From an uncultured Lachnospiraceae bacterium (GTDB lineage: Bacteria; Bacillota; Clostridia; Lachnospirales; Lachnospiraceae), in contig CAMVGV010000022.1 of NCBI GenBank assembly GCA_947167135.1, forward strand, positions 1 through 41,945: a stretch of DNA of 41,945 nt. The letters run 5' to 3'. Position numbers and translations under genes: made by a program. The notes under the pieces were generated by a model. The model saw only the letters and a list, made by a program, of their open reading frames with translations. It was not told the DNA's origin and ran no database searches. Within the stretch, counting starts at the first letter, position 1. Each line of letters begins with the position of its first letter. Below, piece after piece: positions 16,555 to 41,945 of this stretch.

Positions 16555-16670
16555 ATTGTCAAGTCTCCTCTCGTTCTTCTCCCCTCTTTATTATTCTATC
16601 TTAGCATCTTAAAAAATTTCCCACAAGAGAAAATATGATGATACAAACACCGGTTGACGGATCCTTTGTA

Positions 16671-16700
16671 AGATTCTTCGGGCTGCGCCCTCAGAATGAC
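16671..16700. repeat. Dispersed GTCATTCTGAG palindrome, single copy
   Basis: A near-perfect hairpin: ATTCT, a TC/TC mismatch, GGGC, loop TGC, then GCCC and AGAAT, flanked by GAC. It matches the copy at 37977-38005 in reverse orientation and the ATCCT/AGGAT versions elsewhere. It lies between the divergent chemoreceptor and CDF genes, just upstream of the CDF promoter. Confidence 0.7.
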
Positions 16701-16713
16701 ATAATGCAAGAAC

Positions 16714-27861: not shown

Positions 27862-28037
27862 AGCACACTCTCCTTATGCAAAAATAAAAGCTTCCGTATC
27901 GTAAGCCTTTGAACGCCTGTCCTGCGTCAAACTGTAAAATTATTTATGAACAGCTCCTTATTTCATCGAAAATACAACGGGTTTTTACGGGCGAACGCCC
28001 ATAGAAACATCAGATCAATAATCAGAAAAACGTTGTG
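27862..28037 (-). promoter_or_regulatory. Structured leader of the kinase operon, with possible antiterminator
   Basis: About 176 bases from the predicted start site to the TTG. It contains a long stem with ACAACG/CGTTGT arms plus T5/A5 pairs, capped by GGGC/GCCC. A second stem follows, TTGA.CGC with GCG.TCAA (about 27907-27932). The terminator-like hairpin at 27877-27910 comes last. The second stem and the terminator share two bases, so they could compete. No known leader family recognised. Confidence 0.45.
27877..27910 (-). terminator. Terminator-like hairpin inside the kinase leader
   Basis: On the minus strand AAAGGCTT (27903-27910) pairs with AAGCTTTT (27886-27893), with one G-U pair and a 9-base loop, then ATTTTTG. 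It lies after the promoter at 28044-28072 and only 15-20 bases before the kinase start codon, so it can act as an attenuator, or end a short RNA. Confidence 0.6.
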
Positions 28038-29232: not shown

Positions 29233-30366
29233 CTACAAAAACCTCTCTCTTGTTTCCTTTTCACATTCAAAAATCCTGTCAAGGCCGGGATCCGGAATGC
29301 TTATGTGCCTCTCCATAGCCTGTTCTATCTTTTCCGCTATTTCCGGATACTTTATCTCGCCCTTAAGGAAGAGCTTCACTGCTTCCTCATTTGCAGCATT
29401 GAAAACCGTAGGCATGGTTCCGCCTGCTCTTGCAGCCTTCAGAGCCAGCTCAAGCCCCCTGAAGGTCTTCATGTCCGGTCTTTCAAAGGTCAGGCTTCCT
29501 ATCCTGAAAAGATCCAGCCTCTCCATTTTCAGGCTCATTCTCTCAGGGTAAAACAGGGCATACTGGATAGGCAGATGCATATCCGGGATCCCAAGCTCCG
29601 CTATAACCGCTCCGTCCTTAAACTGAACCCCGGAGTGGACTATGCTCTGGGGGTGGATCAGGACCTCGATATTATCATAATCCACATCAAACAGCCAGTG
29701 GGCCTCCATAACCTCAAGTCCCTTATTAACAAGAGTTGAAGAGTCAATGGTAACCTTCGGTCCCATGTCCCAGTTCGGATGCTTCAGAGCCTTTTCGGCG
29801 GTCATAGCTTCAAGCTCATCCGGACTCTTTCCCCGGAAGGGGCCGCCGCTTGCTGTCAGAAGAATCTTTTCCACAGCAGAATGCTTTTCTCCGTTCAGGG
29901 ACTGGAATATGGCAGAATGCTCCGAATCCACCGGAAGGAGCCTGACTCCGTTTTCATTAGCCTCCCTTGTAATGATATGTCCGGCTGTAACAAGAGTCTC
30001 CTTATTTGCCAGGGCAATATCGTGACCGGCTCTTATAGCCGCAAGTGTGGGCCTTATCCCTATCATTCCCACCATTGCTCCCACAGTGATATCGGAGTCG
30101 GCGGAGGCTGCCTCCATGATGCCGTCCATACCGGAAAGCACCTTTACCGGGGTATCGGCGGTCTTTATTTTCAGCTCCTCTGCAGCCTTTTCGTCATAGA
30201 GCGCGGCTATATCGGGCTTATACTTTCTTATCTGTTCCTCCATAAGAAAGACATTTTTCCCTGCAGCGATGGAAACCACAGAAAGTAAGGATGGATGTTC
30301 ATCAACTATATCCAGTGTCTGGGTTCCGATAGAACCTGTTGACCCGAGTATGCTTAGTTTTTTCAA
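29233..30366 (-). CDS. dxr: 1-deoxy-D-xylulose 5-phosphate reductoisomerase
   Basis: Catalyses the NADPH-dependent conversion of DXP to MEP, the committed step of the non-mevalonate isoprenoid pathway. The 377 residues begin LKKLSILGSTGSIGTQTLD, containing the nucleotide-binding GSTGSIG. Active-site landmarks are PVDSEHSAIFQ, LTASGGPFRG and TIDSSTLVNKGLEVMEAHWLF. I set the start at TTG 30364-30366 with AGGAGG six bases upstream. The open frame extends to 30468, but that part reads through a repeat (CHPERQRRIF) and is not coding. It follows cdsA, separated by a repeat array. Confidence 0.95.
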   Translation of the reverse strand: MKKLSILGSTGSIGTQTLDIVDEHPSLLSVVSIAAGKNVFLMEEQIRKYKPDIAALYDEKAAEELKIKTADTPVKVLSGMDGIMEAASADSDITVGAMVGMIGIRPTLAAIRAGHDIALANKETLVTAGHIITREANENGVRLLPVDSEHSAIFQSLNGEKHSAVEKILLTASGGPFRGKSPDELEAMTAEKALKHPNWDMGPKVTIDSSTLVNKGLEVMEAHWLFDVDYDNIEVLIHPQSIVHSGVQFKDGAVIAELGIPDMHLPIQYALFYPERMSLKMERLDLFRIGSLTFERPDMKTFRGLELALKAARAGGTMPTVFNAANEEAVKLFLKGEIKYPEIAEKIEQAMERHISIPDPGLDRIFECEKETRERFL

Positions 30367-30405
30367 ATTAGGCCTCCTGATTAATGTGTTATTCTGAGCG
30401 GGAAA

Positions 30406-30597
30406 GATCCTTCGCTGACGCTCAGGATGACAGAATGGCGCCCTTGTCATCCTTCGCGCCCCTGCCATCCTGAGGAGCGTTCGCGACGAAGGATCTTATC
30501 CTTCGCGCCCCTGTCATCCTGAGGAGCGTTCGCGACGAAGGATCTTATCCTTCGCGCCCCTGTCATCCTGAGGAGCGTTCGCGACGAAGGATCTTAT
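30406..30597. repeat. Palindrome plus three 49-bp tandem repeats between cdsA and dxr
   Basis: A single palindrome at 30406-30431 (GATCCTTCGC, loop TGAC, GCTCAGGATGAC) is followed by three 49-bp units at 30451-30499, 30500-30548 and 30549-30597. The second and third are identical; the first differs by one base. Each holds GTCATCCTGAG, a GCG-TT-CGC centre, then GAAGGATC. The last unit overlaps the cdsA TAA stop. The array sits inside the conserved operon; no terminator T-run is seen. Confidence 0.85.
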
Positions 30598-31445
30598 CGG
30601 TTCATAGTGCAGCAGAGTATGTAGATCACCGGTGCGGTTATTATGATAGAGTCAAAGCGGTCAAGAATCCCGCCATGACCCGGTATCACTTTTCCGTAAT
30701 CCTTTATTCCCTGATCCCTCTTTATACCCGAGGCAAAGAGATCACCGAACTGTGAAACCACAGCACCGGCTCCTGCCACCACAGCGAAGACAGCTATATT
30801 TCCATGGGTAATAAGTGCAAGTATCCCGCCGAACAGAGCAGCAAACATGGTGCCGCCGACAGCTCCCTCCACGGATTTTTTCGGTGAAAGCACCGGTGCC
30901 AGCTTATGCTTACCAAAAGCCCTGCCGGTAAAATACGCAAAGGTATCACAGATCCAGGAGGATATTACAACCAGTAAAACCTCTGTTAATCCGTTCTCCC
31001 GAAGCCTCAAAAGATAAAGAAAGGACAGCATAAAGGGAATATAAAGAAAGCCGAAGAAATCCCTTATTATCCGTACATTGTCATATTCGGGATAACGGGC
31101 AACAAAGCATATCATAAAAACCACAACCGAAATAACGATCGTGTATAGCATATATTCGTATCTTCTGCTTAAAAGGATAACCACATAGTACCCTACCGTG
31201 CATAAATACCCGGCTATTTCCGGCAGGGCTGTCTCATACAAAGGCTCTTTCCCGGAAAATTGCGGAGAAGAAAGAGCAGCAGGGTCTTTCCCTGCAGGAA
31301 TCCGCCTCACGGCCCTTAAGAATTCGCTGTAGCCTGTAATGGAAATAAAAAGAAGAAGGACCCACCACAGGAGTCCCCCGTAATACAGCCCTGCACCGAG
31401 TATCACTACAAGCACTACGGCGCTGAATACCCTTGTTCTCAGCAT
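30594..31445 (-). CDS. cdsA: Phosphatidate cytidylyltransferase
   Basis: A membrane enzyme that makes CDP-diacylglycerol from phosphatidate and CTP, feeding phospholipid synthesis. The 283 residues contain about eight helices. The CdsA signature is near the end: KDYGKVIPGHGGILDRFDSI. The LSPKKSVEGAVGG segment is also typical. It starts four bases after uppS. Its stop codon TAA (30594-30596) lies inside the last 49-bp repeat unit. Confidence 0.95.
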   Translation of the reverse strand: MLRTRVFSAVVLVVILGAGLYYGGLLWWVLLLFISITGYSEFLRAVRRIPAGKDPAALSSPQFSGKEPLYETALPEIAGYLCTVGYYVVILLSRRYEYMLYTIVISVVVFMICFVARYPEYDNVRIIRDFFGFLYIPFMLSFLYLLRLRENGLTEVLLVVISSWICDTFAYFTGRAFGKHKLAPVLSPKKSVEGAVGGTMFAALFGGILALITHGNIAVFAVVAGAGAVVSQFGDLFASGIKRDQGIKDYGKVIPGHGGILDRFDSIIITAPVIYILCCTMNR

Positions 31446-31449
31446 TTAC

Positions 31450-32166
31450 TCATTCCACCTGTTCTCCGGTCTTTCCGAAGCGCCTCTGCCTCGAAGAATA
31501 ATGTTCCAGAGCCTTTACCAACTCCTCTTCCGTAAAAGCAGGCCAGTGTACGTCCGTAAAATAGAACTCGGTGTAGGCACACTGCCAGAGAAGATAATTT
31601 GACAGCCTCATTTCTCCGCTAGTTCTGATGAGGAGGTCAGGATCGGGAATTCCCGCAGTATCAAGATGCGAGCTTATCATTTCCTCCGTCACAATCCCGT
31701 CCCCGGGAAGAATCCCTTTTTCCTTTTCTTTAAGGATCAGATTCACCGCCCTCACTATCTCATCACGGCTTCCGTAATTCAGGGCGATCTGAAAATTTAG
31801 CCCGTCAAAATCCCTGCTGAACTCCTCCAGCTCCCGGATACTTTTCTGAATATCCTCTGCGAGACCGGTCTTGTCTCCGATTATCCTTACCCGCATATGA
31901 TTCTTTTCCGCAGTATTCTTACAGGTCTTCAGATATGAACGTAAAAGATCCATAATAGCATTTACTTCATCCCCCGGTCTGGACCAGTTCTCCGTGGAAA
32001 AAGCATATACAGTGAGATATTTTATCCCCTTGTTCCAGGCGATACGACAGATGTTCTCCACATTTTTCGCGCCCTGGGTATGGCCGAAGGTTCTTGGCAT
32101 CCCTTTGGACTTCGCCCATCTGCCGTTACCATCAAGGATAATTGCCACATGCTGCGGTACGTTCAA
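31450..32166 (-). CDS. uppS: Undecaprenyl diphosphate synthase
   Basis: A cytoplasmic cis-prenyltransferase that elongates farnesyl diphosphate to the C55 carrier lipid for peptidoglycan. 238 residues. Motifs: ILDGNGRWAKSKGMPRTFGH at the N terminus with the catalytic Asp, YAFSTENWSRP, and the C-terminal LIRTSGEMRLSNYLLWQ. The start is TTG 32164-32166, overlapping the frr stop, with AAAGGAG upstream. It pairs with dxr/ispG in the same block. Confidence 0.96.
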   Translation of the reverse strand: MNVPQHVAIILDGNGRWAKSKGMPRTFGHTQGAKNVENICRIAWNKGIKYLTVYAFSTENWSRPGDEVNAIMDLLRSYLKTCKNTAEKNHMRVRIIGDKTGLAEDIQKSIRELEEFSRDFDGLNFQIALNYGSRDEIVRAVNLILKEKEKGILPGDGIVTEEMISSHLDTAGIPDPDLLIRTSGEMRLSNYLLWQCAYTEFYFTDVHWPAFTEEELVKALEHYSSRQRRFGKTGEQVE

Positions 32167-32720
32167 ACCGTCATGATCTCCTTTTCTTTCTCAGCTCCGG
32201 CTTCATCGATCTTTTTAATGAACTTATCCGTAACCTTCTGAAGCTCATCCTGAAGATCCTTTATAACATCCTCGGAAATATCCTCCGATTTTCCGAGCTT
32301 CTTCAAATGGTCAACACCGTCACGCCTGATATTTCTGACGGCAACCTTGCACTCCTCGCCCCTCTTCTTTACATCCTTGCAGAGCTCTTTTCTCCTGTCC
32401 TCTGTAAGCTCGGGAAAAACAAGACGGATAGCGGTACCGTCATTATTGGGATTGATCCCGATATCAGATGCCTGAAGTGCCTTTTCGATATCCTTTAACA
32501 GGCTCTTGTCATAGGGCTTTATCATGATCACCCTGGCTTCCGGAACGGAAACATTGCCTACCTGCTGCAAAGCAGTGGGAGTTCCGTAGTAATCCACCTT
32601 GATCTTGTCGAGTATATGTGGATTTGCCCTTCCTGCCCTTATGGAAGCAAGCTCTCCCTGAAGGTTCTCAAGGGATTTCTGCATCTTGTCCTCGTATTTA
32701 GCGATCCTTTCGTCTGACAT
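32163..32720 (-). CDS. frr: Ribosome recycling factor
   Basis: Splits post-termination ribosomes together with EF-G. 185 residues, the standard length. The conserved parts are SIRAGRANPHILDKI near the N terminus and ALQASDIGINPNNDGTAIRL in the middle. It lies between pyrH and uppS as in most Firmicutes. The AAGGAG ribosome binding site is about 15 bases from the ATG, longer than usual, with no nearer in-frame start. Confidence 0.97.
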   Translation of the reverse strand: MSDERIAKYEDKMQKSLENLQGELASIRAGRANPHILDKIKVDYYGTPTALQQVGNVSVPEARVIMIKPYDKSLLKDIEKALQASDIGINPNNDGTAIRLVFPELTEDRRKELCKDVKKRGEECKVAVRNIRRDGVDHLKKLGKSEDISEDVIKDLQDELQKVTDKFIKKIDEAGAEKEKEIMTV

Positions 32721-32744
32721 AGGCTTTTGCTCACGCTCCTTTCA

Positions 32745-33440
32745 TTAAACGGTAACCTCTGTACCGTCGAAATCTCCCGAAACAGCCTTTACAATGCTGT
32801 GTTCACCGTTTAACAGGAATACCCTCATCGGCATCCTGTTCTCCATAGCCATTATTGATGCGGTGAGATCCACCACCTGAAGCTTCTTTTCTATTACCTC
32901 CTCTATAGTGAGGCTTTTATATTTCCTGGCATCCGGATTGCTCTTGGGATCGCTGTCATAGACTCCGTCAACAGCCTTTGCAAGGAGTATCATATCCGCG
33001 TCTACTTCTATAGCGCGCAAAACCACTCCGGTGTCGGTGGAAAAGTAGGGATGACCGGTGCCCCCTGCGAAGAAAACGACCTGCCCCTTCGAGAAGTATT
33101 TATTTGCCCTGTCCTTTGAAAACAGCTTTGTAAAGCCCTCTATACCAAAGGGGGTAAGTATGGAGGTCATCATTCCCTCTGAACGGAATATCTCAGATAC
33201 GTAGATACAGTTCATAACCGTAGCCAGCATCCCTATCTGATCGGCCTTTGTCCTGTCGATACTTTCGCTGGTCCTGCCTCTCCAGAAATTGCCCCCGCCG
33301 ATAACTATTCCCACTTCCATGCCCTGCTTTACCAGAGCGGATACATCCTTTGCAACGGTACGGACAGTATCCTCATCAAAACCGGTCTTTTTCTCTCCCG
33401 AGAGAGCTTCTCCGGAGAGCTTCAGCATTACTCTTTTCAT
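32745..33440 (-). CDS. pyrH: UMP kinase
   Basis: Phosphorylates UMP to UDP. 231 residues of the amino-acid-kinase fold: KLSGEALSGEKK at the N terminus, GGGNFWRGRTSE for phosphate binding, and GTGHPYFSTDTGV for the nucleotide. In other Firmicutes rpsB and tsf precede it; here a bactofilin gene does, 17 bases away. The start is ATG with GGGGGTGG upstream. Confidence 0.96.
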   Translation of the reverse strand: MKRVMLKLSGEALSGEKKTGFDEDTVRTVAKDVSALVKQGMEVGIVIGGGNFWRGRTSESIDRTKADQIGMLATVMNCIYVSEIFRSEGMMTSILTPFGIEGFTKLFSKDRANKYFSKGQVVFFAGGTGHPYFSTDTGVVLRAIEVDADMILLAKAVDGVYDSDPKSNPDARKYKSLTIEEVIEKKLQVVDLTASIMAMENRMPMRVFLLNGEHSIVKAVSGDFDGTEVTV

Positions 33441-33457
33441 GCCACCCCCATATTCCG

Positions 33458-34951
33458 TCAGCCCTTGACGGAATTTTTCAGATCATCAAAAAATGATGTG
33501 GGACTAACTTCTGCGTAGCACTGCGAGCAGTGTCCCTCAACTACGGCTCCGTTATTTATCTGAACGGATTTTGACTTGATGTCGCCCATTACTATTGCTG
33601 AGGTATCAAGTATCACAGGTCCCCGTACATCAATGTCACCCTTTACCGCACCTGCGATAACTGCGCTGGTTGCAGTGATATTTCCGATGATAACAGACTC
33701 CTGTCCCACCTTAACTGCGCCCTTGCTTATTACCTCGCCTGTGATCTTTGCGGAATCGGCAAATACCTCGGAAGCCTTGGAATTTCCGGTGATCGATCCC
33801 GAAACATTGAGCTTTCCTCTCACGTTGATATTGCCCTTTACAGCACCTATCACCTCAAGAGATCCCTCGGATGTGACATCACCGTTAATAGTCATTCCTG
33901 CTGTAACACAGCCGCTTTCATCCGCCTCGGGTCCGTCCTCCAGAACGGGGAGCGTTACTTCTGCATTGTTCTCTACACTCATCTTTTCTGTCTCCTTATC
34001 ATCATCAGTTTCTGTATCTGTAATAAGATCATCCTCTTCCGGAAGTATGGCTTCCTCCGCTTCTCCCGAAATAAGCCCCTCTACCGCAGCCATCACGCTT
34101 TCTTCCACGGGAGCGGGTTCTGTGTCCGCAGCCGGTTCGGGTAACGGTTCCGCCTTGAACCCGGGATCTGCTCCAGACTCAGTCTCTATAGCTGCTTCGG
34201 GTTCGGGCTCTGCCTCAGGCTCAGGCTCTATAGCCGCTTCGGGTTCGGGCTTCAGGGCTTCCGGCCAAGGTTCTGATGCGGCTTCCGGCATAATATCCGG
34301 CTCCGCTGCAGGCTCTTCAGCTACAGGCTCAGTCATTATTTCCGGCTCAGCTGCAGGCTCAGTCATTATTTCCGGCTCAGCTGCAGGCTCTTCAGCTGCA
34401 GCCTCAGTCATTATTTCCGGCTCCGCTGCAGGCTCTTCAGCTGCAGCCTCAGTCGTAAATTCCAGCTCCGCTGCAGGCTCTTCAGCTGCAGCCTCAGTCA
34501 TAAATTCCGGCTCCGCTGCAGGCTCTTCAACTGCAGCCTCAGCCATTATTTCCGGCTCCACTGCAGGCTCGCTCATTGTTTCAGGCTCAATAGCAGCCTC
34601 CGGCATGATTGCGGTCTCCGCTTCCCCGGTTGCCGGCTCACCGGTTTGCAGATCCGTATCCGGAAGGAAAGGATCCTGAAGAACATTGCTGCCTGAAAAG
34701 CTGAGATCAGGAGTCAATCTGGGATCAGACTGCAGATCTCCCGGATCCGGCTTCGGCTCTGTATCAAAATCAAAAACAGGCTCCGGGATTTTATCTATCA
34801 TTTCAGAAAGATTCAGGCTCTCCTGTACACCCTCCTCGACGGTTTCCGGGATCAGGGTGTCAGCCGAATCCCCTTCTTCTTTTGTTCCGGCTGCATTCAG
34901 CTCTCCAACAGCCTGGGACAGGTCTTCCTTAAATTCATCAAAAAAACCCAT
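33458..34951 (-). CDS. Bactofilin with long acidic repeat region
   Basis: A polymer-forming cytoskeletal protein. The C-terminal 150 residues are the bactofilin (DUF583) right-handed beta helix: GMTINGDVTSEGSLEVIGAV, then repeated GxIxxxxxV rungs through SKSVQINNGAVVEGHCSQC. The first 340 residues are acidic and Pro/Ala/Glu-rich, with a 15-residue repeat of the type EIMTEAAAEEPAAEP (see 34300-34580). Bactofilins usually have under 200 residues, so the N-terminal part is unusual. Two Cys in the last rung (CSQC) are notable. AAGGAGG sits before the ATG. It lies between a deacetylase gene and pyrH, which suggests a link to cell-wall shaping. Confidence 0.85.
   Translation of the reverse strand: MGFFDEFKEDLSQAVGELNAAGTKEEGDSADTLIPETVEEGVQESLNLSEMIDKIPEPVFDFDTEPKPDPGDLQSDPRLTPDLSFSGSNVLQDPFLPDTDLQTGEPATGEAETAIMPEAAIEPETMSEPAVEPEIMAEAAVEEPAAEPEFMTEAAAEEPAAELEFTTEAAAEEPAAEPEIMTEAAAEEPAAEPEIMTEPAAEPEIMTEPVAEEPAAEPDIMPEAASEPWPEALKPEPEAAIEPEPEAEPEPEAAIETESGADPGFKAEPLPEPAADTEPAPVEESVMAAVEGLISGEAEEAILPEEDDLITDTETDDDKETEKMSVENNAEVTLPVLEDGPEADESGCVTAGMTINGDVTSEGSLEVIGAVKGNINVRGKLNVSGSITGNSKASEVFADSAKITGEVISKGAVKVGQESVIIGNITATSAVIAGAVKGDIDVRGPVILDTSAIVMGDIKSKSVQINNGAVVEGHCSQCYAEVSPTSFFDDLKNSVKG
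34300..34580 (-). repeat. In-frame 45-bp tandem repeat within the bactofilin gene
   Basis: About six imperfect 45-bp units (GCTGCAGGCTCTTCAGC-type) encode 15-residue acidic repeats. All copies are in frame. Copy number could vary between strains without breaking the protein. Confidence 0.8.
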
Positions 34952-34965
34952 CTAAATATCCTCCT

Positions 34966-35979
34966 TCAGTTTTTATCCAAATACTGATGCAGCGGCGGTG
35001 TATCATCATCTATGGCTCTGATATCTGCCCCTCTTTCCTTCAGACCCTCAAGGATCCCGGGAAGCGCATCCACCGTATTCTTCCTGCTTCCGGTATCGTG
35101 AAGCAGAATAACAGCAGTTTTTCGCCTGTCAACCCCGTCAAGAGTGTTTTTTATGATATTTTCAGCCGAGAGCCTGTTTCCCGAAGAATCCCCGCCGTAG
35201 ACATTCCAGTCATAGTACTCCATTCCCTGACTGTAAAGCACAGATATGTACTGCTCCATGGGAAGAGAAGCAATGGTATTTCCGCTGCCTCCGGGAAAAC
35301 GATAGTATTTCGGCACCACACCCGTCTCATTATAGATTAGATTCCGTATTTTATCAAGGTCGTACTGGAACATATCCAGATCCCCGTAAACCCTTGAATA
35401 CACGTGGGAATACGAGTGCATGCCGATGGTGTGTCCCTCGTCAACTATCCTTTTATAAACAGGGCGGAGGCTTTCATCATTGTCCCCTGTCCCGCATACA
35501 AAGAATGTGGCTTTAACATCATATTCCTTCAGAATATCAAGTATTTCATTTGTGAAGACCGAGGGTCCATCATCAAAGGTAATGTATACCTTCTCATCCT
35601 CCCCCTTCATGGGAATATCACTGTTCACCAGGGAATTCTCATCCTGAAGGGAATCATCGTCGATCTTCTCCGGCATATCAGGCACGGAATCTGCACTCAG
35701 GGAAGTATCGGTTTTTTCCGGAGCATTATTCTCCGGCATTCCTTTCTTTCCGTTTTCCGGCTTATCCTTCTTTGGCGTAAAAGGAACATCCTTTTCTCCG
35801 GACGCTTCCGGAGCTTCTGCAGCAGTTTCGGTAAGTTCCGCGTTATAGACCTTTTCACTGCCTCTCTTAATAAGAAAAAGCAAGGAAATAATAAGCAGCA
35901 CAAGAACCGCGACACATGAAACACATGCCGCGGCGAGTAAGTACAGCTTTCTTCTTCTTTCTCTTTTAATTCGAACCAT
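34966..35979 (-). CDS. Membrane-anchored NodB-type polysaccharide deacetylase
   Basis: Predicted to remove acetyl groups from peptidoglycan or another surface glycan. 337 residues with a basic N terminus and a single helix (about 11-37), a low-complexity linker, then the catalytic domain (about 128-330). Motifs: ITFDDGPSVFT with metal Asp, HSYSH with metal His pair, RFPGGSGN, and LLHDTGSR near the C terminus. All five motifs look intact. The Shine-Dalgarno sequence AAGGA lies inside a 35-bp palindromic repeat unit eight bases before the ATG. It is followed 14 bases later by the bactofilin gene. Confidence 0.9.
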   Translation of the reverse strand: MVRIKRERRRKLYLLAAACVSCVAVLVLLIISLLFLIKRGSEKVYNAELTETAAEAPEASGEKDVPFTPKKDKPENGKKGMPENNAPEKTDTSLSADSVPDMPEKIDDDSLQDENSLVNSDIPMKGEDEKVYITFDDGPSVFTNEILDILKEYDVKATFFVCGTGDNDESLRPVYKRIVDEGHTIGMHSYSHVYSRVYGDLDMFQYDLDKIRNLIYNETGVVPKYYRFPGGSGNTIASLPMEQYISVLYSQGMEYYDWNVYGGDSSGNRLSAENIIKNTLDGVDRRKTAVILLHDTGSRKNTVDALPGILEGLKERGADIRAIDDDTPPLHQYLDKN

Positions 35980-35985
35980 TATAAA

Positions 35986-36165
35986 GATCCTTCGCTGGCG
36001 CTCAGGATGACAAAATGGAGGATCCTTCGCTGGCGCTCAGGATGACAAAATGCAGGATCCTTCGCTGGCGCTCAGGATGACAAAAACGGTACTCATTATG
36101 ACAAAACGGTACTCTTTATGACAAAACGGTACTCGTTATGACAAAACGGTACCCGGGATACAGGG
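35986..36165. repeat. 35-bp x3 and 20-bp x4 tandem repeats
   Basis: Three 35-bp units begin at 35986, 36021 and 36056, each with GATCCTTCGCTGGCGCTCAG then GATGACAAAA. Immediately after, four 20-bp units (ACGGTACTCnTTATGACAAA) begin at 36086, 36106, 36126 and 36146. Read on the minus strand, the 35-bp units contain GTCATCCTGAG and the 20-bp units GTCATAATGAG or close variants. They fill the region between the deacetylase start and the end of the upstream lipoprotein gene. Confidence 0.9.
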
Positions 36166-36167
36166 TC

Positions 36168-37694
36168 TCAGAAGAAGATATTCTTCCCTGTCTCGAAATA
36201 GTAATTATTTGAGGGTATGATCTCCGATCCCTTTATTTCAAACACCTCCCATACCACTCCGGAGTGGCCGACAGGCACCTGGAAGGAGCCCACAAGGCCG
36301 TTTTTATTATAAAGCTTAACCTGTGCCCCGGAAAGAGACATATCATTAGTCAGATTATTCCCGGATTTCCCGTTTACCTGATCCGTTACAAAATACTTGT
36401 AATCCGTCCCACTGTCAACCGTTATCACCTGTGAATCATCATTATCGTATTTCCCGGAATTCAGATCAAGAGTAAATGGCTTAAGGCCTGCTATTTTTTC
36501 ATTGTCGTAGGTAAGAACGGCCTCATACTGGTTTTCCTTTAATTTATCCGGCGACTGCTTCGTTACATCAAGAAGATAGACATCGGTATCATGTTTATTC
36601 GCGCCACTGGGTGCCAGATAGGTGACTCCCGCAGGATATTCTATTGTGCGGGGTCTTATATAGATGTCGTTCAACTTTGAAGGCGCAAAATCACCGTATT
36701 CGAACAGCAGATTATACCAGTCTGCGGTATTTACGGGAACAATAAACTCATAATACCCGTCCCCGTTACTGGTAACGGTATCTGTGTACCCATTCGCTTC
36801 ACTTGTAATTGTTACCGAGGTATTCGCAAGCGTTCCTCCCTGTTCATCAGCCACATATCCGTATATCTTCGCTATGGAGGGGATGTCCTTAAGAACATTA
36901 TAATTAATATATGCTCTGTTTATAAGCTCTGCCTCCATCTCATCATATTCCTTCTGAATATCCGGATTCAGATCCTTATACGCGGCTGCATTAACCGACT
37001 CATTATTGTCTCCGTAGGTCGCATAGCATTCCGACAGGAAATCATTGATAAAATAGCACCTCTGTCCGCCGCTTTTCCTGGCATCATCCGCATTGATCCC
37101 GTACAGATCGTCAAGATATCTGTACGTATAGAGAAGAACCCCGTTCTTGTAATAAAAGCCGGTAACCTCGCGTCCCTCACTGCCATACTCCGTGGAAACG
37201 ATCTTGTCGATCAGTCCGTCCTCAGGATCTGTGTATACAGTAAAATCAATGGTCGCCCCGTTTCCGCTTCTTATAAGTCGTATGGTCTTTACCTTATCAT
37301 CCTTCAGCCCCTCTTCGATCTCTTTCGGAGCCTTTTTGTTTATCGCGAGATCTCCGTCACGCTCTGCCGGCTTGTATTTCACGGTTTCATAATCGATTTT
37401 GGGAAGAACGCCACCGGTTTTTTTAATAAAAGCCACAGCCTCATCAAAGCTGTCCGAAACGGCGCGGTCCTCATCATTTACCGCGGCATCCTTCTCTTCC
37501 TCTGTTTCCTCCTCGATATCCTCTACCGATGGAATGGAGATATCGGAGGCTTCTTCGGTTGAAGGAGCCTCGGCTTCATCCTTATTCGTGACTATTTCTT
37601 CTGTTTTCCTTCCGCAGCCGGTAAGGCTTAAGCCCGTCAGACATACTGTTAAAACGATGGGCAAAACTGCTGTTTTTATTCTGAAATGATACAT
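36168..37694 (-). CDS. Lipoprotein with carboxypeptidase regulatory-like domain
   Basis: A 508-residue lipoprotein with a signal ending LTGC (Cys27), then an acidic linker (about 40-75). A central region contains IYGYVADEQGGTLANTSVTI and GDGYYEFIVPV, the carboxypeptidase regulatory-like/CNA-B-type beta sandwich. The C-terminal part seems beta-rich (SGVVWEVFEIKGSEIIPSNN). No catalytic motif is visible. CGGAGAT lies six bases before the ATG. It is upstream of the deacetylase gene in the same direction, but a repeat array lies between them. A role as a surface carrier or adhesin is inferred only. Confidence 0.75.
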   Translation of the reverse strand: MYHFRIKTAVLPIVLTVCLTGLSLTGCGRKTEEIVTNKDEAEAPSTEEASDISIPSVEDIEEETEEEKDAAVNDEDRAVSDSFDEAVAFIKKTGGVLPKIDYETVKYKPAERDGDLAINKKAPKEIEEGLKDDKVKTIRLIRSGNGATIDFTVYTDPEDGLIDKIVSTEYGSEGREVTGFYYKNGVLLYTYRYLDDLYGINADDARKSGGQRCYFINDFLSECYATYGDNNESVNAAAYKDLNPDIQKEYDEMEAELINRAYINYNVLKDIPSIAKIYGYVADEQGGTLANTSVTITSEANGYTDTVTSNGDGYYEFIVPVNTADWYNLLFEYGDFAPSKLNDIYIRPRTIEYPAGVTYLAPSGANKHDTDVYLLDVTKQSPDKLKENQYEAVLTYDNEKIAGLKPFTLDLNSGKYDNDDSQVITVDSGTDYKYFVTDQVNGKSGNNLTNDMSLSGAQVKLYNKNGLVGSFQVPVGHSGVVWEVFEIKGSEIIPSNNYYFETGKNIFF

Positions 37695-37720
37695 ATTCTT
37701 ATCTCCGGATCACATTATTA

Positions 37721-37785
37721 AGTCGCCAAAAGTACTGAATCACTGTTTTGAAAAAACGACTTGATCCGTTTCTTTCAGCAACTCT
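37721..37785 (+). repeat. Fragment of the MITE-like element
   Basis: 62 bases (37724-37785) align without gaps to 40045-40106 with five mismatches. It starts CGCCAAAAGTACTGAATCAC and ends TTTCAGCAACTCT, where the 25-bp array begins. The rest of the element is missing. Confidence 0.8.
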
Positions 37786-37987
37786 ACGGTCTCCCGCCGC
37801 TCTCATTCCGAGGCTCTCCCGCCGCTGTCATTCTGACGGTCTCCCGCCGCTCTCATTCTGACGGTCTCCCTCTACTGTCATTCTGACGGTCTCCCGCTAC
37901 TGTCATTCTGACGGTCTCCCGCTACTGTCATTCTGAGAGTCTCCATCTACTGTCATTCTGAGAGTCTCCATCTACTGTCATTCTGAG
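37786..37987. repeat. 25-bp tandem array, eight units
   Basis: Period exactly 25: CTCCN cores at 37791, 37816, 37841, 37866, 37891, 37916, 37941 and 37966. A typical unit is GTCATTCTGACGG, then TCTCCCGCTACT. The last units change to GAGAGTCTCCAT and run directly into a full palindrome (37977-38005). No unique spacers occur, so it is not a CRISPR array. Confidence 0.9.
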
Positions 37988-38186
37988 GGCGAAGCCCGAA
38001 GAATCTTTCCCCACGGATGAGAAGATCCTTCGCTGACGCTCAGGATGGAAAAACGTCCTGTGGGTCTCCGCTTCGCTGCGGTCCGTCCTAAACGCACGTC
38101 CACCGGACGTGCAGGACCGTTTTTCGGGTACGTTTTGACGCGCTTTGCGCGGCAGTGCCCCGGATCCTTCGCCTACGCTCAGGATC
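37977..38186. repeat. Cluster of palindromic hairpins
   Basis: Six hairpins within 210 bases. The first is ATTCT.GGGC/GCCC.AGAAT (37977-38005). Then come GATCCTTCGC/GCTCAGGAT (38024-38048), CCGC/GCGG (38068-38081), and a perfect 8-bp GCACGTCC/GGACGTGC stem (38094-38112) enclosed by GTCCT/AGGAC. The last two are CGCGC/GCGCG (38139-38151) and GATCCT/AGGATC (38163-38186). With the MITE fragment and the 25-bp array, this fills the 557-base gap between the two lipoprotein genes; no gene is evident there. Confidence 0.75.
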
Positions 38187-38251
38187 ACACAAATGATACC
38201 ACATTATTTTATTAAAATACGGAGATTAAGATAATCATAAGGAAATATTCA

Positions 38252-39952: not shown

Positions 39953-40036
39953 CCTTTTCCTCCTCTAATACAGGGTTCCATTTATTAAAAATACTTTCCG
40001 GCCGGTGCCGGTGTGAACAGTAATGCCGTATCAAAT

Positions 40037-40237
40037 GATTCGGACGCCAAAAGTACTGAATCACTGTTTTGATACAACGAATTGCTCCGTTGCTTTCAGC
40101 AACTCTCGCAATTCTACAACACTCGCAATCCGCTAATTTACTACGTAAATTGCTACTTGCTCGTGTTGTTTGACGCCCAAAGTCAAATGGCTTTTTGAAC
40201 AAGTTCAAACGCCATTTAGACTTTTGGCGTTTGTATC
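40037..40237 (+). mobile_element. Complete 201-bp MITE-like element
   Basis: Imperfect terminal inverted repeats match at 15 of 18 bases: GATTCGGACGCCAAAAGT at the left and GATACAAACGCCAAAAGT (reverse complement) at the right. A 7-bp direct repeat, ATCAAAT, flanks it (40030-40036, 40238-40244). Inside are an AATTTAC/GTAAATT stem and, in the right quarter, an internal GACGCC copy that forms a long hairpin with the right end (40173-40230, including AAATGGC/GCCATTT and TTTGAAC/GTTCAAA). It encodes no protein. It lies between a lipoprotein start and the ATPase stop codon. Confidence 0.75.
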
Positions 40238-40238
40238 A

Positions 40239-41483
40239 TCAAATATACTCCGGAGGTATCGATACGGTATGCTCATTCAGCCACAGAGCCTTTGGATACC
40301 TGCATATTATCACTCCTGTTCCGCGTTTCTTCCCGGGAATTCTGTCAATAATATCAAAGGTATTTGTCATTGAAAGCTTTGGATTGGCTGAAAGCTTGAC
40401 TTCTATGGGATATATCGTTCCGTCTGATTCGATCATAAGATCTATCTCCGATTCCTTTGATCTGTCAGCGCCTGATTTGTCCTTTCCCCTATAGTATGTC
40501 ACATACATTCTATAGTCCATCCCGCAGTTTGAAAAGCTTTTAAGGATCTCCGATACAACAAAGGTTTCAAACAGTGCTCCGGACATGGCGCCGTTTGCAG
40601 CAGTTGCGGCTGTCTGATGCCTTGTAAGATAACATACAAGTCCAGTATCCCTAAAATAAAGCTTAGGTGTTTTAATCGCTCTTTTCAAGACAGAATTTGA
40701 GTATGGCTGCAATAAATAAACAATACCTGAAGCTTCCAAAAGCGATACCCACTCCTTCGCAGTGGCCACACTTATTTCCGCCTGTTCGGCAATAGAACTG
40801 AAATTCAGCATGCTTCCCGTTCTGGCAGCAGCAGCTGTCAAAAATACGCTGAACTTCAATTTATCCTTTATCCTTGTCAGATCATTTATATCCCTGTCTA
40901 TATATGTGCTGACATACGAACCATAAAACATCTCCCAGTCCGTATCCTCGTCCAGAAGGGCGGGATAACTTCCCCTATGGATAATATCCCACAAATCCCT
41001 CTTCTTTGAAAAAACCGGTTTTCTGTCAAGAATAAAATCTCTTCTCGGAATGAAAGGAAGATGAAGACTGTCATTATTCAACTCTCTCAATGACAAACCT
41101 GACAGCTCCAATATCCCAATCCTTCCCGCAAGAGATTCCGACACATTTTTCATCAATCGAAAGTGCTGGGAGCCTGTCAAATGAATGATACCTTTTTCAG
41201 CGGAATTATCACATTCGATTTTTATATACGGGAAAAGCTCTGTAATATACTGTATCTCATCAAGTATCAACGGAGGCCTGTTATTAATGAAAAAAAGACC
41301 CGGTTCACGCTTTGTTTCTCTCAACAGAACAGGATCATCAAATGTACGGTAAGGTATATCACTATAGATATGTTTAAGCAGGGTCGACTTTCCGGTCTGC
41401 CTTGCTCCGGTAACAAGAATAGCCTTAAAGCTCCTATCCCCCTTTTTTATGGCATCTTCAATATGCCTGTCTATATACTTCAT
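40239..41483 (-). CDS. AAA+ ATPase with DUF4143 domain
   Basis: A 414-residue ATPase of a family that is scattered in bacteria and archaea and of unclear role. Walker A is VTGARQTGKSTLL (about residues 24-36); Walker B is PLILDEIQY (about 69-77). A winged-helix segment follows (FSSIAEQAEISVATAKEW), then the DUF4143 end with YFRDTGLVCYL and a PD-(D/E)XK-like pattern, EIDLMI with PIEVKLS. Length is typical. The promoter TTGACA-N18-TATACT and a CGGAG site support the ATG at 41483. Its TGA stop abuts the MITE-like element. The family is often mobile; no partner gene is seen. Confidence 0.88.
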   Translation of the reverse strand: MKYIDRHIEDAIKKGDRSFKAILVTGARQTGKSTLLKHIYSDIPYRTFDDPVLLRETKREPGLFFINNRPPLILDEIQYITELFPYIKIECDNSAEKGIIHLTGSQHFRLMKNVSESLAGRIGILELSGLSLRELNNDSLHLPFIPRRDFILDRKPVFSKKRDLWDIIHRGSYPALLDEDTDWEMFYGSYVSTYIDRDINDLTRIKDKLKFSVFLTAAAARTGSMLNFSSIAEQAEISVATAKEWVSLLEASGIVYLLQPYSNSVLKRAIKTPKLYFRDTGLVCYLTRHQTAATAANGAMSGALFETFVVSEILKSFSNCGMDYRMYVTYYRGKDKSGADRSKESEIDLMIESDGTIYPIEVKLSANPKLSMTNTFDIIDRIPGKKRGTGVIICRYPKALWLNEHTVSIPPEYI

Positions 41484-41544: not shown

Positions 41545-41601
41545 GTAGCGGAAGCTGAAATCATCAATTACGCTGTCATCCCGCCAAATATCTATGACTT
41601 T

Positions 41602-41716
41602 TTGCGGACGAAATCGGTAATTGTCCGCAGGAATCCGGCTTCGCCGGACACGCCGACCGGCAAGCCGCTCGGCTGGTCAATTACGATTCTTGTTTTTCCG
41701 ATGAAAAACAAGAATC
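41602..41716. repeat. Four hairpins upstream of the ATPase gene
   Basis: TGCGGAC/GTCCGCA (41603-41609, 41623-41629), TCCGGC/GCCGGA with a 3-base loop (41634-41648), a bulged GACC..AGCCG/CGGCT.GGTC stem (about 41655-41678), and a perfect 13-bp GATTCTTGTTTTT stem with a 6-base loop (41685-41716). The 462-base stretch 41484-41945 holds the ATPase promoter, these hairpins and the terminal repeat. A 60-codon frame here lacks gene-like composition. Possible terminator or remnant of a mobile element. Confidence 0.6.
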
Positions 41717-41779
41717 TATGTATCCCTGTCCGACACTCCCATATGTGTGTATAAGAATACTGTGTTTCTTTCATATTAT

Positions 41780-41945
41780 GATTCGGACGCCAAAAGTCAC
41801 ATTTTGATTAAATACGGATTGTTCCGTGCTACGCACTCCCACAATCCTACCCCACACTCGCATTTCGCGGGGCCCCTTCCCCACTTCATGCGTAACAGTC
41901 AAATCATCCGCTATCGGATAAATGCAGCGCCATTTTTCAATGGCG
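41780..41945 (+). repeat. Window-end copy of MITE-like element (right part missing)
   Basis: Starts GATTCGGACGCCAAAAGT like the copy at 40037. The first 55 bases are the exact reverse complement of 1-55. The middle differs from the copy at 40037 but keeps the CACACTCGC and GTCAAAT landmarks. It ends in an ATCCG/CGGAT stem and a CGCCATT/AATGGCG hairpin whose last base is the last base of the window. Confidence 0.75.

What the first reader, a model, noticed from the sequence alone, without database searches (positions are those of the whole stretch)
30406..38186. Four tandem arrays of different period share one GTCATnnTGAG seed
Four arrays lie within 8 kb: 49 bp x3 (30451), 35 bp x3 (35986), 20 bp x4 (36086) and 25 bp x8 (37786). 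In one orientation each unit carries GTCATCCTGAG, GTCATTCTGA(C/G) or GTCATAATGAG, with a few one- or two-base variants, followed by unrelated sequence. The seed is half of a dispersed palindrome. The pattern suggests a sequence-specific process that repeatedly copies DNA next to this seed, like REP elements and their RAYT nucleases, rather than ordinary slippage. All four arrays are intergenic.
Basis: partly seen in the sequence, partly recalled or inferred. Interest (0 to 1): 0.72.

Follow-up and report, generated by a model that had tools for sequence, protein, structure and literature searches.

The report
Half-palindrome repeat arrays ending in hairpins
Short palindromic DNA elements in this bacterium multiply their front half into small tandem arrays that nearly always end in one complete hairpin, and the same one-sided pattern turns up in bacteria of many phyla, but the enzyme or copying fault behind it is not known.

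Summary
In detail: all four arrays sit where stated, and the seed occurs 1033 times genome-wide against 15 for the reversed control. The seed is the 5' half of a REP-type palindrome, T|GTCAT(T/C)CTGAG-loop-GAAG(A/G)ATCTT, whose tip has the GNA/GNNA loop of extra-stable DNA mini-hairpins in 81 of 90 copies.

Most units are 5' heads cut near the hairpin tip plus a short pyrimidine-rich spacer ending in T; the last copy is a complete palindrome in 90 of 95 clusters. Mirror-image arrays are rare: 63 head versus 5 tail arrays genome-wide. Array heads show no clear replication-strand bias. Arrays turn over between related species and occur in many phyla.

RAYT is not supported as the agent: Y1 genes neither track the elements nor lie beside them. 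Best guess: the strand-specific hairpin provokes local re-copying at its tip, then slippage expands the units. Against it, only 11 of 93 arrays with a clean flank have their spacer in that flank.

The parts
30404..30432 (-). Full REP (TGTC head to CTT tail), beside array 1 in opposite direction
30449..30598 (+). Array 1: 49-bp unit x3.1, each unit with a whole REP; ATCCTTCGCGCCCCT precedes the first copy too, as in a plain tandem duplication that includes the upstream flank
   Evidence: TRF; sequence
35986..36085 (-). Array 2: 35-bp unit x2.9, whole REPs; its 3' end on the minus strand is the intact REP
   Evidence: TRF
35984..36012 (-). Terminal full REP of the compound array 2/3
36077..36152 (-). 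Array 3: 20-bp unit x3.8, decayed truncated heads (GTCATAANGAG + TACCGTTTT), upstream of array 2 on the minus strand
   Evidence: TRF
37786..37986 (+). Array 4: 25-bp unit x8.0, truncated heads with pyrimidine-rich spacer
   Evidence: TRF
37976..38007 (+). Terminal full REP of array 4
38022..38049 (-). Inverted partner REP (head changed to TCCATCC), REPIN-like pair with 37976-38007
38161..38189 (-). Degenerate REP-like palindrome (TGTGATCC... GGATCCG)
16670..16701 (-). Solitary full REP elsewhere in the window

Best explanation
The arrays are local, one-sided amplification products of a TGTC-tagged REP element. Shown: the GTC strand can form a hairpin with a GNA/GNNA tip; truncated units are copies of its 5' arm up to about the tip plus a short spacer; the last copy is nearly always an intact REP; heads, not tails, are multiplied. 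Inferred: when the GTC strand is being synthesised its 3' end folds at the tip, leaves the template and re-pairs some 17-28 nt upstream or on another template, so the head is copied again before synthesis passes through the whole REP. Once two heads exist, ordinary slippage and unequal recombination expand, shrink and homogenise the units. No dedicated transposase is needed for this step; how REPs reach new sites is not addressed.
For: Last copy full in 44/46, 25/26 and 21/23 clusters of G000, G003, G037; earlier copies truncated in 94/105, 37/47, 31/34. Truncation 0 of 76 times beyond tip centre +5, 34.7 expected if uniform. 63 head versus 5 tail arrays in the whole genome with mirrored patterns. 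No clear strand bias to the fork: array heads 17 on the G-rich, 21 on the C-rich strand, so the polarity belongs to the element. Tip loops GNA/GNNA in 81 of 90, the loops reported for extraordinarily stable DNA mini-hairpins (PMC4686876, passages); these loops exist on one strand only. 6 of 45 home and 5 of 48 non-Lachnospiraceae clean arrays carry the spacer in the flank, 0.4 and 0.3 expected. Copy number differs between related species. Many array-bearing genomes show no Y1 hit.
Against: 82 of 93 clean arrays do not have their spacer in the flank, which a plain slippage start would require. Spacers are pyrimidine-rich (67% home, 77% far) while clean flanks are not (52%, 51%). In the 12 flank-derived cases half have no microhomology at the joint. 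Spacers were not found before other heads above chance in sum (15 against 15.5; G000 alone 12 against 7.5). Many cuts lie just before the loop, when the mini-hairpin would not yet be complete. The computed energy gap between the strands is small (mean -3.99 against -3.50 kcal/mol).
Confidence: 0.42

Rival explanations
1. A REP-specific single-strand nuclease, an HUH/Y1 enzyme other than a linked RAYT or an unrelated enzyme, cuts at T|GTC and re-primes or joins strands there, placing a head copy plus filler directly in front of an existing REP.
For: Most clean arrays begin sharply at T|GTC with a spacer foreign to the flank. T precedes 94 of 94 strict full REPs and CT or CC follows. Polarity follows the element, not the fork. 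TnpA-REP recognises one strand of a REP, needs its 5' tag and stem mismatches, and cuts at CT 5' or 3' of it (PMC8266576, passages); this element also has a 5' tag, GA/GA mismatches and a 3' CT.
Against: No Y1 gene examined (3 of 3 in G000, 2 of 4 in G003, 1 of 1 in G032) has a REP beside it. G037 has no Y1 hit and 7 of 15 array-bearing genomes none (completeness of these unknown). No other nuclease family was searched for.
Confidence: 0.27
2. Truncated heads are remnants of REPs that were inserted one after another in front of older REPs and then lost their 3' arms by hairpin-promoted deletion, later copied in tandem.
For: Some arrays repeat whole REPs (arrays 1 and 2; 6, 3 and 3 all-full clusters). 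Inverted and clustered REPs are common. A few scan loci look like a REP inserted into the tip of another (CCTTCG in the spacer, 6 of 82).
Against: In home arrays the last truncated unit shares the following full copy up to the tip, including its own loop variant in many cases, pointing to local copying. Deletion of the same arm would have to happen in almost every unit but the last.
Confidence: 0.18
3. The heads are kept because a protein binds GTCATYCTGAG as duplex DNA, like iterons, and arrays are selected for binding.
For: The head is the shared part of all arrays; 67 of 76 last truncated units are 17-28 bp long.
Against: Arrays at the same site differ or vanish between species at 95% and 86% identity; 43 of 48 genomes of the genus lack the enrichment; array 3 has decayed heads and kept spacers.
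Confidence: 0.06

Closest known systems
CGTC-tagged REP super-family (Di Nocera et al. 2013, PMC3733652; sections 6 and 16 read)
   Same: Unpaired TGTC tag at one end (a reported variant of CGTC), stem starting with AT pairs, intergenic, high copy, pairs with tags outward, no linked transposase, presence in several phyla.
   Different: Tail here is CTT, not CCA; loops here are mostly 3-4 nt GNA/GNNA with a GA/GA mismatch in the stem. Grouped elements are said to be rare there except in Neisseriae and Wolbachia; half-palindrome head arrays are not described in the parts I saw (the figures are not held).
GTAG REPs and REPINs with RAYT (TnpA-REP); PMC3116915 and PMC8266576, passages
   Same: Imperfect hairpin with 5' tag and stem mismatches, strand-specific, inverted doublets, tandem clusters known.
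   Different: Tag is GTC, not GTAG; no linked RAYT found; the reported tandem clusters repeat whole REPINs or REPs with flanks, not truncated heads.
Wolbachia VNTR-105/141 (PMC3287509, passages) and Neisseria dRS3 clusters (named in PMC3733652)
   Same: Tandem repeats that hold CGTC-type hairpins and vary between strains; hairpin-triggered slippage proposed for Wolbachia.
   Different: Periods of 105 and 141 bp with whole hairpins; no one-sided truncated heads reported in the passages seen.
d(GCGAAGC) type mini-hairpins (PMC4686876, passages)
   Same: The commonest REP tip is exactly GCGAAGC (GAA loop in 40 of 90).
   Different: Studied there as synthetic oligonucleotides; a link to REPs was not searched for.

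Membership tests
REP element (general) | 20-40 bp palindrome, high copy, intergenic | tested here: met
   24-31 bp from GTC to the end of the 3' arm, 94 strict copies in 406 kb; 1033 seeds genome-wide; mostly outside ORFs
CGTC-tagged REP super-family | Unpaired CGTC or TGTC tag at one end | tested here: met
   TGTC in 94 of 94 strict copies (GTC was part of the search pattern, the T was not)
CGTC-tagged REP super-family | Stem of 8-9 bp beginning with AT residues, loop of 4-5 | tested here: inconclusive
   Begins with AT pairs; 5 bp + GA/GA mismatch + 2 or more bp; loop 3-4 nt. The count depends on how mismatches are treated
CGTC-tagged REP super-family | Unpaired tail, mostly CCA | tested here: not met
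   Tail CTT; +1 C 94/94, +2 T 91/94, +3 T 93/94
RAYT-mobilised REP/REPIN | GTAG tag | tested here: not met
   Tag is GTC
RAYT-mobilised REP/REPIN | RAYT gene flanked by the REPs | tested here: not met
   The RAYT-like gene of G000 and two in G003 have no seed within about 1.5 kb of what was read; contig ends cut the view for the second G003 gene
RAYT-mobilised REP/REPIN | RAYT present wherever the REPs are abundant | tested here: not met
   G032 one IS200-type hit, G037 none (90% complete)
RAYT-mobilised REP/REPIN | Inverted doublets with tags outward | tested here: met
   28 of 94 strict copies have such a partner (counted from both sides), 24 at 18-21 nt
RAYT-mobilised REP/REPIN | Cleavage of the REP strand by the enzyme | not testable with these tools
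   Needs biochemistry
IS200/IS605 element ends | Hairpins flanking tnpA | tested here: not met
   No seeds in the 6-20 kb stretches around the three IS200-type genes looked at
CRISPR | Constant repeats with unique spacers of near-constant length | tested here: not met
   Repeats truncated except the last, spacers short and mostly alike within an array

The most novel reading that the evidence does not exclude
A widespread, RAYT-independent, strand-specific copying process acts at TGTC-tagged REP hairpins across bacterial phyla: it adds, at T|GTC, a copy of the hairpin's 5' arm plus a short pyrimidine-rich filler that mostly does not come from the adjoining flank, and so seeds tandem arrays that record its polarity.
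Probability: 0.3. Interest if true: 0.85.

Novelty: new variant of a known kind. Interest (0 to 1): 0.6.

Why it matters
CGTC/TGTC-type REPs have no known mobiliser, and how short palindromes multiply is an open question. Dozens of polar half-REP arrays per genome, with breakpoints at the hairpin tip and rapid turnover, are a natural record of a copying step and make it testable: any mechanism must give heads rather than tails, stop near the tip, end on a full copy and leave a pyrimidine-rich spacer. The arrays could also serve as fast-evolving markers between close strains.

Tried and rejected
RAYT or IS200 as agent: no association found.

Replication-strand effect: array heads on G-rich/C-rich strand 17/21 in G000, 8/13 in G003, 7/11 in G037; the C-rich strand leads in all three but not significantly (my estimate), and orthologous loci are not independent.

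Spacer copied from nearby DNA: excess only upstream on the same strand (t 1.8 to 3.1 in four comparisons); of 12 downstream or inverted comparisons one reached t 2.5. Spacer copied from in front of another head in the samples: 15 found, 15.5 expected in sum (G000 12/7.5, G003 2/4.9, G037 1/3.1). Nested insertion into the tip of an older REP: suspected for a few scan loci (CTTCG-like spacer in 6 of 82; home 2 of 76), not followed. Arrays moving as cassettes: apart from one 208-bp segmental pair and TATTAT shared by adjacent divergent arrays, no shared spacer stood out by eye; not counted, though one search lists TCTCTCTT before heads at two loci.

Rfam: no match in 30300-38250 at E up to 1. Literature: literal seed and REP strings gave 74 papers; the 40 listed look by title like primer or oligo matches; half-REP arrays were not seen in the listings (titles and abstract starts only).

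Faulty steps: the tail-motif pattern also matched the inverted partners of doublets; by eye it held a few true tail arrays (L025 twice, L027, L028). It was replaced by the mirror patterns. One search stopped with an index error after its first results and was redone. The scan set first called distant holds 18 Lachnospiraceae arrays, at least 8 loci of them from G037 and G032; that use it mix them in, and repeats the main counts without them and without repeated home spacers (12 of 106 became 11 of 93).
Full report
What is there. The four arrays are at the stated places and lie between genes. The seed GTCATNNTGAG is found 11 times in the window (0.33 expected) and 1033 times in the 2.91-Mb genome against 15 for the reversed pattern. 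The window is the whole of contig 22 of a 119-contig assembly. That RUG means rumen genomes is recalled.

Sample. I read 405,945 bp of the genome: 20 stretches plus the window. C1 and C2 were chosen because seeds were listed there, C13, C36 and C44 for their Y1 genes, and the starts of C3-C11 blindly. Stretches of G003, G037, G011, G032 and G036 came, mostly for synteny or known seeds. Counts from samples are therefore enriched for REPs; searches are whole-genome.

The element. Ninety-four strict full copies share GTCAT(T/C)CTGA...GAAG(A/G)AT. T precedes all 94; C follows in 94, then T in 91 and T in 93. The two arms change together (ATTCT/AGAAT or ATCCT/AGGAT; imposed by the pattern, but both forms are common), and a GA/GA mismatch lies in the stem. 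Among the 90 copies with the CTT tail (28 distinct sequences) the tip is GC-GNA-GC or GC-GNNA-GC in 81. Those loops, with at least two G-C pairs, are reported for extraordinarily stable DNA mini-hairpins, GCGAAGC melting at 78 C (PMC4686876, passages). They exist on the GTC strand only. The computed advantage of that strand is small (lower energy in 27 of 28 distinct sequences, mean -3.99 against -3.50 kcal/mol); I do not know whether those parameters hold the special loop bonuses. Twenty-eight of the 94 have an inverted partner with tags outward, 24 of them at 18-21 nt (counted from both sides), as in REPINs.

The array rule. Heads 14-60 nt apart in one direction form 46, 26 and 23 clusters in the samples of G000, G003 and G037. 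The last copy is a full palindrome in 44, 25 and 21 of them; earlier copies are truncated in 94 of 105, 37 of 47 and 31 of 34. No clusters were seen in the 40-kb G032 and 74-kb G011 samples. By eye, the two exceptions in G037 end on a head followed by other sequence, like an interrupted REP. Truncation falls from 8 nt before to 5 nt after the centre of the tip; 0 of 76 lie further into the 3' arm, 34.7 expected if uniform (the search itself demands about 9 nt of head, and a unit with an almost whole 3' arm would have been called full). Of the 76 last truncated units 67 are 17-28 nt long and 70 have a spacer of 4-14 nt. Arrays 3 and 4 of the window obey this rule, array 3 with decayed heads; arrays 1 and 2 repeat whole REPs.

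Polarity. With mirror-image patterns the whole genome has 63 head arrays and 5 tail arrays; 397 other genomes of the phylum have 4 and 2. In the samples the same patterns give 12:1, 7:0 and 7:0. Viral contigs gave two contigs with head arrays and none with tail arrays. Array heads lie on the G-rich strand 17 times and the C-rich strand 21 times in G000, 8 and 13 in G003, 7 and 11 in G037, so the direction seems set by the element rather than by the fork.

Spread. Titles include Lachnospiraceae, Bacteroidales, Nitrospinota, Planctomycetes (Brocadia, Pirellulales), Cyanobacteria, Dehalococcoidia, Gemmatimonadetes, Armatimonadetes, Terriglobia, several proteobacterial classes, Bifidobacterium and Poribacteria. 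Most are metagenome bins, in which misbinning is possible. Eighteen of the 80 are Lachnospiraceae, at least eight of them from G037 and G032. Yet within the phylum the strict pattern is found in only 4 of 398 genomes, and within the genus only 4 of 48 genomes are rich in seeds (1033, 604, 653, 532) and one is intermediate (73). So the elements are patchy.

Spacer. In home arrays with distinct spacers the base before GTC is T in 68 of 68 counted; in the 62 counted non-Lachnospiraceae arrays it is T 49, C 10, G 3. Without first and last base the spacer is 67% pyrimidine at home and 77% in the far set, against 52% and 51% in clean flanks. Flank and spacer are alike far above chance over all 77 home arrays (0 of 2000 shuffles), but much of that comes from older decayed units. 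Among arrays whose 40-nt flank has no decayed head, 6 of 45 at home (0.4 expected) and 5 of 48 far (0.3 expected) carry the spacer in the flank; 82 of 93 do not. Spacers resemble nearby DNA mainly upstream on the same strand and are not found before other heads above chance in sum. Their origin is the main unexplained point.

Turnover. In four syntenic regions 27 seed clusters were compared; orthologous places were found in G037 for 23, G003 for 24 and G011 for 24, and some clusters are single chance seeds in genes. Test-region identity to G000 is 95% for G037 and 86% for G003 and G011. At L027:7979 G000 has an array and the three relatives none. At L027:11137 truncated units number 7 in G000, 0 in G037 and 2 in G003. 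At array 1 of the window G000 has 49-bp units, G037 20-bp units, G036 nothing. At L027:5863 G000 and G037 agree (2 units). At L029:3533 a single REP of G037 is doubled in G000 with its flanks, an ordinary tandem duplication.

Arrays and REPs. In the G000 sample 43 of 56 intergenic tandem arrays carry a head, in G003 20 of 29; the G011 sample and 61 kb of element-poor genomes have no intergenic arrays (small intergenic totals of 4.3 and 2.4 kb).

No RAYT link. Pfam Y1_Tnp finds 3 genes in G000, 4 in G003, 1 in G032, 0 in G037, and up to 17 in genomes without the elements. The RAYT-like gene of G000 scores 79.5 against 80. None of the six Y1 genes examined (of eight in these genomes) has a REP beside it. 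Of 15 genomes with head arrays 8 have a Y1 hit and 7 none (one of the 15 is G032 again, completeness unknown). TnpA-REP biochemistry nevertheless fits the anatomy in kind: one strand recognised, 5' tag, stem mismatches, cut at CT (PMC8266576, passages).

Mechanism. Shown: identity of the element, polarity, truncation near the tip, final full copy, turnover. Inferred: that the GTC-strand hairpin makes the growing 3' end let go near the tip and restart upstream, and that slippage then multiplies units. The missing flank source of most spacers is a real difficulty, and an unknown nuclease remains a serious rival.

Known or new. The element is REP-like and closest to the TGTC variants of the CGTC super-family, which also lack a linked transposase (PMC3733652, sections 6 and 16 read), but tail and loop differ from that description. 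Half-palindrome head arrays were not seen in the listings or passages of my searches; figures and most subscription papers are not held.

Noticed in passing
window 40035-40245, 41590-41719, 41773-41891, 38022-38162, 27910-27960: Other dispersed repeats: these stretches match many places in G037, G003 or G011 at about 80-100% identity (query offset 21,999).
   Followed up: no
L016:3597-3677, L019:19468-19547, L031:5470-5557: A second palindromic family of about 41 bp (CTCGCCGGGG..GGCATCCCACATC..GATGTGGGATAAA), in tandem pairs and lying inside REPs of G003 (L144 and L149).
   Followed up: no
L143:9237, L144:8319 and 13790, L156:8913: Divergent REP pairs at several loci share the centre GACA(A/G)TAAGCCTGTC.
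   Followed up: no
window 34162-34600: In-gene tandem repeats (periods 42, 45, 75, 30) inside ORF 33458-34951, unrelated to the seed.
   Followed up: no
L170, L178, L184, L197, L209, L220: In these non-Firmicute loci the spacer holds CCTTCG (inverted REP tail) and CTCAGG-type sequence follows the full REP in most, as if a REP had inserted into the tip of another.
   Followed up: partly
L017:13444-13893, L024:1626-1717: Intergenic-looking tandem arrays without the head (periods 33, 58, 22), some sharing ACGGATATCC or GGATATCC.
   Followed up: no
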